DNA of 32,211 nucleotides, taken from contig JAISGX010000105.1 of the NCBI GenBank assembly GCA_031262805.1, forward strand, positions 1 through 32,211, given 5' to 3'. This DNA comes from Verrucomicrobiota bacterium. Its GTDB lineage: Bacteria; Verrucomicrobiota; Kiritimatiellia; CAIQIC01; Lenti-01. This document shows, in pieces, positions 22,986 through 24,330 of this stretch (positions within the stretch are counted from its first letter, which is position 1; every line of letters starts with the position of its first letter). A program made the position numbers and the translations under genes. Under the pieces are notes generated by a model. The model had not been told where the DNA came from, ran no database searches, and saw only the letters and a program-made list of their open reading frames with translations.

Positions 22986-23678
22986 CTATTTCCCTTCCAT
23001 CCCATTGCCCTTCCACGCGGCCTGCGCCTTCCAGCGCATATCTGCAAGGGTGTCGCGCATATCTGCGGCCTTGAACAAAAAGGAACCCGCCAGCAACACA
23101 TTGGCCCCTGCCGCCGCGCAGCGCGCACCGGTTTCCGTGGTGATGCCGCCATCCACCGCAATATCCACCGTTGGCAGGCGGCGGGCGATGGCTTCGATTT
23201 TCGCCAACCCGGATTCCATGAAGGCCTGTCCGCCGAAACCCGGGTGCACGGTCATGACGAGCACTTCATCCAGCACATCCTCATATCCATCCAGCGCGGA
23301 CACCGGGGTTTCCGGGCACAGCGTCAGCCCCGCCCGCCTTCCGGCGGCGCGGATGCCTTCCAGCGTCCCCCGCAGATCGCCTTCCGCCTCCACATGGATC
23401 AACACGGTGTCCGCACCGGCCTCCATGAAGCGGGGGGCATACAGATCGGGACGCATAACCATCAGGTGGACATGCAGATCCGCCTCCGGCAGGTCTTCTC
23501 GGATGGCACGGAGGATGTCCGGCCCCATGGTCAGGTTCGGAACAAACCGGCCGTCCATGATGTCCACATGCAGACCGGCCGCCCCCGCCGCCATGGCCCG
23601 GCGGCAGTCCGCCGCCAGGAAGCCCATGCGGGCCGACAAAATCGACGGCATCACGATGATTTCTTTTCCGCTGCTCAT
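22986..23678 (-). CDS. rpe: ribulose-phosphate 3-epimerase
   Basis: MPSILSARMGFL, HVDIMDGRFVPNLTMGP, VMTVHPGFGGQAFM, VDGGI. Confidence 0.96.
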   Translation of the reverse strand: MSSGKEIIVMPSILSARMGFLAADCRRAMAAGAAGLHVDIMDGRFVPNLTMGPDILRAIREDLPEADLHVHLMVMRPDLYAPRFMEAGADTVLIHVEAEGDLRGTLEGIRAAGRRAGLTLCPETPVSALDGYEDVLDEVLVMTVHPGFGGQAFMESGLAKIEAIARRLPTVDIAVDGGITTETGARCAAAGANVLLAGSFLFKAADMRDTLADMRWKAQAAWKGNGMEGK

Positions 23679-23902: not shown

Positions 23903-23974
23903 TTTTCCACTCATTGGAAAAAATGATCGGGACTTTTCCACTCATTGGAAAAATTGTTTCCACCCGATGGAAAC
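23903..23974. repeat. three imperfectly tandem palindromes TTTTCCA-N5-TGGAAAA type
   Basis: Copies at 23903-23921, 23934-23952 (TTTTCCA CTCAT TGGAAAA) and 23956-23974 (GTTTCCA CCCGA TGGAAAC). Each has perfect 7-bp arms. Confidence 0.85.
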
Positions 23975-24330
23975 CTCCGGCTTCACACTCGTGGAGCTGC
24001 TTGTCACACTGGCGGCGGCGGCCCTGCTGGCCACCGTGGCCGCCGGAATATACCCCGCCGCCCTACAAGGCCGCTCAGGCGGCAAGTTGCCGCTCCAACC
24101 TCCGCCAACTGGCCGCCGCCAACCACGCCTATGCCCTTGACCATGGCCGCTTCGTCGCCGCCGCCTCGGATGTGGATGGAAACAACCGCATGCGCCGGCA
24201 CGGCATGCGCCGCGGCTCTTCTTTTGACGCCACAGACGGACCGCGGACTCCCTATCTGGGGGGCAAAGCAAGCAGCGAAGGCCTCGGCTGGTTCGGGCCC
24301 GACGCCGACAGCCTCTTTGCCCCCTTTTGA
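23967..24330 (+). pseudogene. type IV pilin/pseudopilin-like N-methylation protein, frameshifted and 3' truncated
   Basis: METSGFTLVELLVTLAAAALLATVAAGIYPA in one frame; continuation KAAQAASCRSNLRQLAAANHAYALDHGRFVAAASDVDGNN...FDATDGPRTPYLGGK in another. Homology-like signal switches frame at about 24060-24075. Confidence 0.75.

What the first reader, a model, noticed from the sequence alone, without database searches (positions are those of the whole stretch)
23903..23974. Three spaced palindromes, with the prepilin start codon inside the third
Copies 1 and 2 are identical (TTTTCCA-CTCAT-TGGAAAA). Copy 3 is GTTTCCA-CCCGA-TGGAAAC, where both outer bases changed so that pairing is kept. Centre-to-centre spacings are 31 and 22 bp, close to 3 and 2 helical turns, as expected for a dimeric DNA-binding protein on one face. 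The ATG of the prepilin-like gene (23967-23969) lies in copy 3, spanning the loop/arm boundary, so bound protein or an RNA hairpin could block initiation. This looks like an operator or RNA switch, and possibly a dispersed genome-wide motif.
Basis: partly seen in the sequence, partly recalled or inferred. Interest (0 to 1): 0.6.

Follow-up and report, generated by a model that had tools for sequence, protein, structure and literature searches.

The report
Genome-wide helically phased DNA-binding palindromes
The three spaced palindromes are not a switch for one pilin gene but one of dozens of near-identical clusters scattered over this bacterium's genome and over many relatives, set 2 or 3 turns of the DNA helix apart, which points to an unidentified chromosome-wide DNA-binding protein.

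Summary
The palindromes are real and far beyond chance: 3 exact matches in the window against 0 in shuffles, and 116 in the genome against 0 for the reversed control. The prepilin switch reading fails: of 8 prepilin-like starts in the sampled DNA only this one has a site upstream, and the ORF is a 57-codon, probably frameshifted fragment. The motif always contains NTGG, so a start-like codon inside it is expected.

What is there is a dispersed site, TTTCCA-NNSNN-TGGAAA, with a gap of exactly 5 and a central C/G in 99% of array sites. It clusters at centre spacings of 22, 30-32, 41-42 and 51-53 bp, that is 2, 3, 4 and 5 helical turns. Such pairs occur in 38 of about 98 sampled genomes of the class (Kiritimatiellia-type) and in 1 of about 190 elsewhere in the phylum. 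Prevotella MAGs carry the same palindrome at 22 bp only. Arrays ignore gene orientation. In one complete genome 72 of 119 sites lie inside genes, and in its genus the arms are more conserved than random positions (0.885 against 0.751).

Best explanation: cooperative binding sites of an unidentified homodimeric protein acting chromosome-wide. The protein and its role are not shown. DNA self-recognition at uptake and a global regulator or insulator remain open.

The parts
23903..23921 (.). Palindrome 1, TTTTCCA-CTCAT-TGGAAAA (centre 23912)
23922..23933 (.). Spacer between palindromes 1 and 2; differs between most loci, length held so that centres are 31 bp apart
23934..23952 (.). Palindrome 2, TTTTCCA-CTCAT-TGGAAAA (centre 23943)
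23953..23955 (.). Short spacer of the 22-bp pair, within an A-rich junction TGGAAAAATTGTTTCCA (elsewhere TGGAAAAAAAGTTTCCA)
23956..23974 (.). Palindrome 3, GTTTCCA-CCCGA-TGGAAAC (centre 23965); holds ATG 23967-23969
23967..24140 (+). Short ORF METSGFTLVELLV... (57 aa) with prepilin-type N-terminus; probable frameshifted gene, neighbour only
   Evidence: pilin-like continuation in another frame to 24330
22986..23678 (-). Neighbouring gene, ribulose-phosphate 3-epimerase by my own reading of the translation; its orthologues in 13 family genomes have no array nearby

Best explanation
The three palindromes are one cluster of a genome-wide family of binding sites for a single, still unidentified, homodimeric DNA-binding protein. 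Each dimer reads two TTCCA half-sites 10 bp apart around a central C:G pair. Neighbouring dimers sit 22 or 31-32 bp apart, on the same face of the helix, and so bind cooperatively, probably touching or bridging. Because clusters are scattered around the chromosome, ignore gene orientation and tolerate coding sequence, the most likely role is chromosome-wide (nucleoid-associated or architectural) rather than control of the adjacent prepilin-like ORF. Shown: motif, abundance, gap specificity, phasing, taxonomic range, arm conservation. Inferred: the dimer, the cooperativity and the architectural role.
For: 116 sites against 0 control. N5 gap only: 153 sites against at most 5 for any other gap in G122. 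162 non-redundant arrays with spacings 22 (78), 30-32 (292), 41-42 (5), 51/53 (2), and only 2 between 23 and 29 and none from 33 to 40; centre base C/G in 99% of array sites. Orientation of flanking genes equals background. 72 of 119 sites inside genes in G122, with the same phasing for in-gene pairs. Arms conserved above random positions across the genus, 0.885 against 0.751, none of 20,000 resamplings reaching it (one search shows one site inside or next to a cysteinyl-tRNA-synthetase-type gene, named, kept in 10 of 13 species). Loops and spacers differ between loci, so arrays are not simple copies of one element. Found in 38 of about 98 class genomes.
Against: No binding protein was identified and no family was found to track the sites. 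Copy number varies a lot between related species (0 to 95 array pairs within one family), odd for an essential architectural factor. In the window's order clusters are almost all intergenic, in another family mostly genic. The conservation test rests on 10 sites in one 20-kb stretch. Gene calls come from a home-made codon-usage finder.
Confidence: 0.55

Rival explanations
1. Self-recognition sequence for natural transformation: the sites are uptake signals like DUS/USS, accumulated by biased uptake and recombination.
For: Hundreds of copies, many inside genes, no orientation rule, near-absent from viral contigs (13 stretches among 2.9 million contigs), a 120-kb site-poor block (4 sites) whose scanned genes look accessory in G122, ComEC in 122 of 126 class genomes.
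Against: ComEC does not discriminate genomes with and without sites. Conserved genes show no excess of sites (weak test). Known DUS/USS are not palindromic and strict helical phasing of clusters is not explained by uptake alone. G021 keeps 244 sites but no ComEC hit (may be an assembly gap).
Confidence: 0.17
2. Operators of a global transcription regulator (or insulators/roadblocks at gene boundaries) with a very large regulon.
For: Clusters are mostly intergenic in the window's order, with median distances of 33 bp to gene ends and 84 bp to gene starts.
Against: Same orientation proportions as background between convergent, tandem and divergent genes, many sites within genes in G122, no recurrent flanking gene family, positions not conserved at orthologous genes.
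Confidence: 0.18
3. Mobile or selfish palindromic repeat (REP/BIME or MITE) spread by a transposase.
For: Intergenic, patchy between species, species-specific loops; two arrays in the own genome share spacers (L017, L021).
Against: No GTAG/CGTC tag in the logo. Y1 transposase (PF01797) absent from the own genome and from G183 (95 pairs) and abundant in array-less G044 and G215. Spacers and loops diverge while arms and phase are kept.
Confidence: 0.06
4. Local operator or RNA hairpin switch of the prepilin gene, as first proposed.
For: Start codon lies in palindrome 3; the 96-nt RNA folds better than shuffles (z -2.8).
Against: 1 of 8 prepilin starts; any palindrome gives a good z-score and the minimum-energy fold does not use palindrome 1 as a hairpin; the motif always carries NTGG; the ORF is frameshifted.
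Confidence: 0.02
5. By-product of DNA methylation or restriction-modification acting on CCAN5TGG, like the cyanobacterial HIP sequences.
For: The core contains CCAN5TGG, a known type II site type (own knowledge); HIPs are linked to methyltransferases (PMC4390886).
Against: The outer TT/AA and central C/G are conserved too, and spacing is quantised by helical turn, neither expected from methylation of CCAN5TGG.
Confidence: 0.02

Closest known systems
HIP1 (highly iterated palindrome, GCGATCGC) of cyanobacteria
   Same: Palindromic, chromosome-wide, lineage-specific and patchy, function unsettled (PMC6604393, PMC4390886)
   Different: HIP1 is a contiguous 8-mer containing methyltransferase sites, about one per 1131 bp in Synechocystis 6803; here an interrupted 17-mer with 10 bp between half-sites, rarer, in helically phased clusters
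DNA uptake sequences (DUS/USS) of Neisseriaceae and Pasteurellaceae
   Same: Hundreds to thousands of copies, genic and intergenic, lineage dialects (PMC3630211)
   Different: DUS/USS are not palindromic; no 22/31-bp phased arrays known to me; uptake role untested here
REP/BIME repeats (GTAG and CGTC families)
   Same: Short palindromes, often intergenic, clustered, patchy (PMC3733652)
   Different: No GTAG/CGTC tag, no link to Y1 transposases, spacing follows the helical repeat
Dispersed sites of chromosome-organising proteins (parS/ParB, matS/MatP, SlmA and Noc sites; own knowledge)
   Same: Palindromic sites of a dimer, many per chromosome, not tied to particular genes
   Different: Those are usually single sites with regional bias; here phased arrays of up to 8 sites and no regional restriction evident in G122; no homologue identified

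Membership tests
REP/BIME (RAYT-mobilised palindromes) | GTAG or CGTC tetranucleotide at one end | tested here: not met
   Logo of 549 sites shows no tag within 12 bp
REP/BIME (RAYT-mobilised palindromes) | Cognate Y1 (RAYT) transposase in the genome | tested here: not met
   None in the own genome (86% complete, 116 sites) nor in G183 (95 pairs); many in array-less genomes
DNA uptake sequence (DUS/USS) | Many copies genome-wide, in genes and between them | tested here: met
   484 sites in G122, 72 of 119 sampled core sites in genes; in the own order mostly intergenic
DNA uptake sequence (DUS/USS) | Competence machinery present | tested here: inconclusive
   ComEC in 122 of 126 class genomes with or without sites
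DNA uptake sequence (DUS/USS) | Accumulation in core/conserved genes | tested here: inconclusive
   No excess in conserved genes (5 of 89 genic sites on 7% of gene length); a site-poor block carries accessory-looking genes
DNA uptake sequence (DUS/USS) | Site-bearing DNA is preferentially taken up | not testable with these tools
   Needs a transformation or uptake assay
HIP-type iterated palindrome | Palindrome over-represented chromosome-wide in a lineage | tested here: met
HIP-type iterated palindrome | Methyltransferase recognising the core | not tested
   No methylome data; a C5 methylase gene lies near a site in G122 but its specificity is unknown
Cooperative dimer-binding sites (chromosome-organising or regulatory protein) | Dyad symmetry with half-sites one helical turn apart and helical phasing of neighbours | tested here: met
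   N5 gap only; 22, 30-32, 41-42, 51-53 bp spacing
Cooperative dimer-binding sites (chromosome-organising or regulatory protein) | A protein that binds the site | not testable with these tools
   No binder identified
Intrinsic transcription terminator | GC-rich stem followed by a T run, at gene 3' ends | tested here: not met
   Arms are TTTTCCA/TGGAAAA, A-rich after the stem; between divergent genes at background frequency
Prepilin operator / RNA switch | Enriched upstream of prepilin-like genes | tested here: not met
   1 of 8 starts

The most novel reading that the evidence does not exclude
A class-specific chromosome-organising or self-marking system: hundreds to over a thousand 17-bp palindromes bound by an unknown dimer that assembles along one face of the helix in 2- and 3-turn steps, with the same motif at 2-turn spacing in Prevotella, suggesting transfer or convergence between phyla.
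Probability: 0.4. Interest if true: 0.85.

Novelty: new variant of a known kind. Interest (0 to 1): 0.63.

Why it matters
Nothing in the papers searched describes this motif. If it marks a chromosome-wide protein in a barely cultivated class, it gives a direct handle (a 72-bp probe) on nucleoid organisation or DNA self-recognition there. The strict 2/3-turn quantisation offers a clean natural case of helical-phase selection, including inside coding sequence. A related isolate record (Pontiellaceae B12227, 71 phased pairs in its genome) may make it testable.

Tried and rejected
Prepilin operator: no enrichment. RNA hairpin or terminator: wrong A/T polarity, spacing follows B-DNA, arms invariant. 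RAYT/REP: no correlation with Y1_Tnp. Recurrent flanking gene family: none, at most 3 members. Conserved position: no arrays at 13 rpe orthologues, and orthologous gene ends in G021 and G025 lack them, though gene order also differs. BrickBuilt MITE of Porphyromonas: different unit (PMC4596501). DnaA boxes: own-genome loops CACAC resemble TTWTNCACA but other genomes' loops do not. ComEC as discriminating gene: universal. Enrichment in conserved genes: not seen. Literature searches for the motif in Kiritimatiellae or Prevotella found nothing.

Full report
OBSERVATION. The window holds three exact copies of TTTCCA-N5-TGGAAA at 23904, 23935 and 23957, with centres 31 and 22 bp apart. None is expected by chance (0 in 100 shuffles). 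The 'prepilin gene' is weaker: the frame from 23967 ends after 57 codons, and a pilin-like continuation lies in another frame up to 24330.

GENOME-WIDE. The window's own genome (1.98 Mb in 154 contigs, 86% complete) has 116 such sites and none of the reversed control. With the gap allowed to vary from 2 to 12 the count rises only to 130. In stretches of three genome sets the gap N5 is essentially the only one used: 62 sites against at most 2 for any other gap (own genome), 61 against at most 1 (G017+G020), 153 against at most 5 (G122). In the own genome the sites come as singles, pairs and triplets with spacings 22 (21 times) and 31 (9 times), plus single cases of 21, 30 and 32.

PHASING. Over 162 non-redundant arrays (549 sites) the spacings are 22 (78), 30-32 (292), 41-42 (5), 51/53 (2) and 62-66 (5), with only 2 between 23 and 29 and none between 33 and 40. 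In the genome-contig scan any spacing from 22 to 32 was eligible, yet almost only 22 and 30-32 occur. Some arrays alternate 31, 32, 31. The largest have 8 sites. The central base is C or G in 99% of array sites. Loops are genome-specific and spacers mostly unrelated, except for a few recent copies such as L017 and L021. This is the signature of dimers bound on one face of B-DNA, not of an RNA structure; it is an inference from sequence.

RANGE. Phased pairs occur in 38 of about 98 sampled genomes of the window's class, with 1 to 724 pairs each, and in 1 of about 190 genomes of the rest of the phylum, with a single match. Named records hit by the array scan are Kiritimatiellae, 'Lentisphaerae' and Verrucomicrobia MAGs, including a Pontiellaceae isolate record. 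The one outside group seen is Prevotella/Prevotellaceae, with 8-30 pairs per genome; the listed Prevotella arrays use 22 bp, mostly with GTTCCA...TGGAAC arms. By matching contig lengths and sites, G004 of the window's family is the sheep-rumen MAG RGIG6649 and G017 is LaPlata-15m-a_bin-260. The class name is inferred from these record titles.

CONTEXT. Around arrays the orientation of flanking genes (75 tandem, 13 convergent, 24 divergent) equals background (268, 53, 92), which argues against promoter or terminator roles. No flanking gene family recurs more than three times. In G122, a single-contig genome with 484 sites, 72 of 119 core sites in 340 kb lie inside predicted genes and 47 between them (coding fraction 0.875), and pairs inside genes keep the 22/31 phasing. 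Gene calls are from my own codon-usage finder and carry some error.

EVOLUTION. Positions turn over: no array lies near rpe in the 13 other family genomes where it was found, and orthologous gene ends in G021 and G025 lack the G017 arrays, although gene order also differs. Within genus g28, where orthologues align, the arms are more conserved than random positions of the same alignments: mean 0.885 over 10 sites against 0.751, with none of 20,000 resamplings as high. The clearest case, at position 10569 of L305, keeps a perfect site in 10 of 13 species, and the site 31 bp away keeps it in 3 of 13. This supports selection on the DNA sequence, though on one 20-kb region only.

PREPILIN LINK. Of 8 prepilin-like starts in about 2.1 Mb of sampled DNA only the window's own has a site upstream. 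The motif always contains NTGG, so an ATG, GTG or TTG inside it is expected. The 96-nt RNA folds better than shuffles (z -2.8), as any palindrome would, but the minimum-energy fold does not form hairpin 1.

RIVALS. RAYT/REP: Y1_Tnp is absent from the own genome and from G183 (95 pairs) and frequent in array-less genomes, and the REP tags are missing (PMC3733652). Uptake signal: compatible with abundance, genic location and near-absence from viral contigs, and G122 has a 120-kb block with only 4 sites whose scanned genes look accessory; but ComEC is nearly universal, conserved genes show no excess, and phasing is not explained. Global regulator or insulator: possible for the intergenic clusters of the window's order, less so for sites inside genes. 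HIP-like methylation by-product: the extra conserved positions and phasing speak against it.

CONCLUSION. I am confident (about 0.85) that these are cooperative binding sites of a dimeric protein, and moderately confident (combined 0.55) that its role is chromosome-wide and architectural. The protein is unknown.

Noticed in passing
window 23967-24330: Prepilin-type ORF appears frameshifted near 24057: METSGFTLVELLV in one frame, NLRQLAAANHAYALDHGRF in another; pseudogene or assembly error.
   Followed up: partly
L021:7480-7560, L024:7720-7745, L027:7479-7670, L036:3519-3600, L038:5056: A second dispersed repeat (GTGCCAATGAAAATGAGACACAAAGC... and CTCGTTC.CCGAGGC...TTGAGACACTTTCGATTCCATTT) lies within about 30-120 bp of palindrome sites in several own-genome loci.
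   Followed up: partly
L336-L341 (G122:C1:100001-220000): A 120-kb stretch with only 4 sites where about 35 are expected; scanned genes include histidine kinases, GH38, sulfatase, AcrB-type pump and secretin, with normal GC.
   Followed up: partly
L070, L074, L100, L108, L128, L134, L144, L148, L165: Prevotella/Prevotellaceae MAGs carry the same palindrome in arrays spaced 22 bp, mostly with GTTCCA/TGGAAC arms and a central C/G.
   Followed up: partly
L308:9673-10785: A C5 cytosine methylase gene starts 233 bp from a palindrome site in G122; its specificity is unknown.
   Followed up: no
G042 versus G080/G122 (genus g28): G042 has 112 sites but only 5 phased pairs, while G122 has 484 sites and 56 pairs, and G080 has 84 pairs: single-site and array-rich states exist in one genus.
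   Followed up: no
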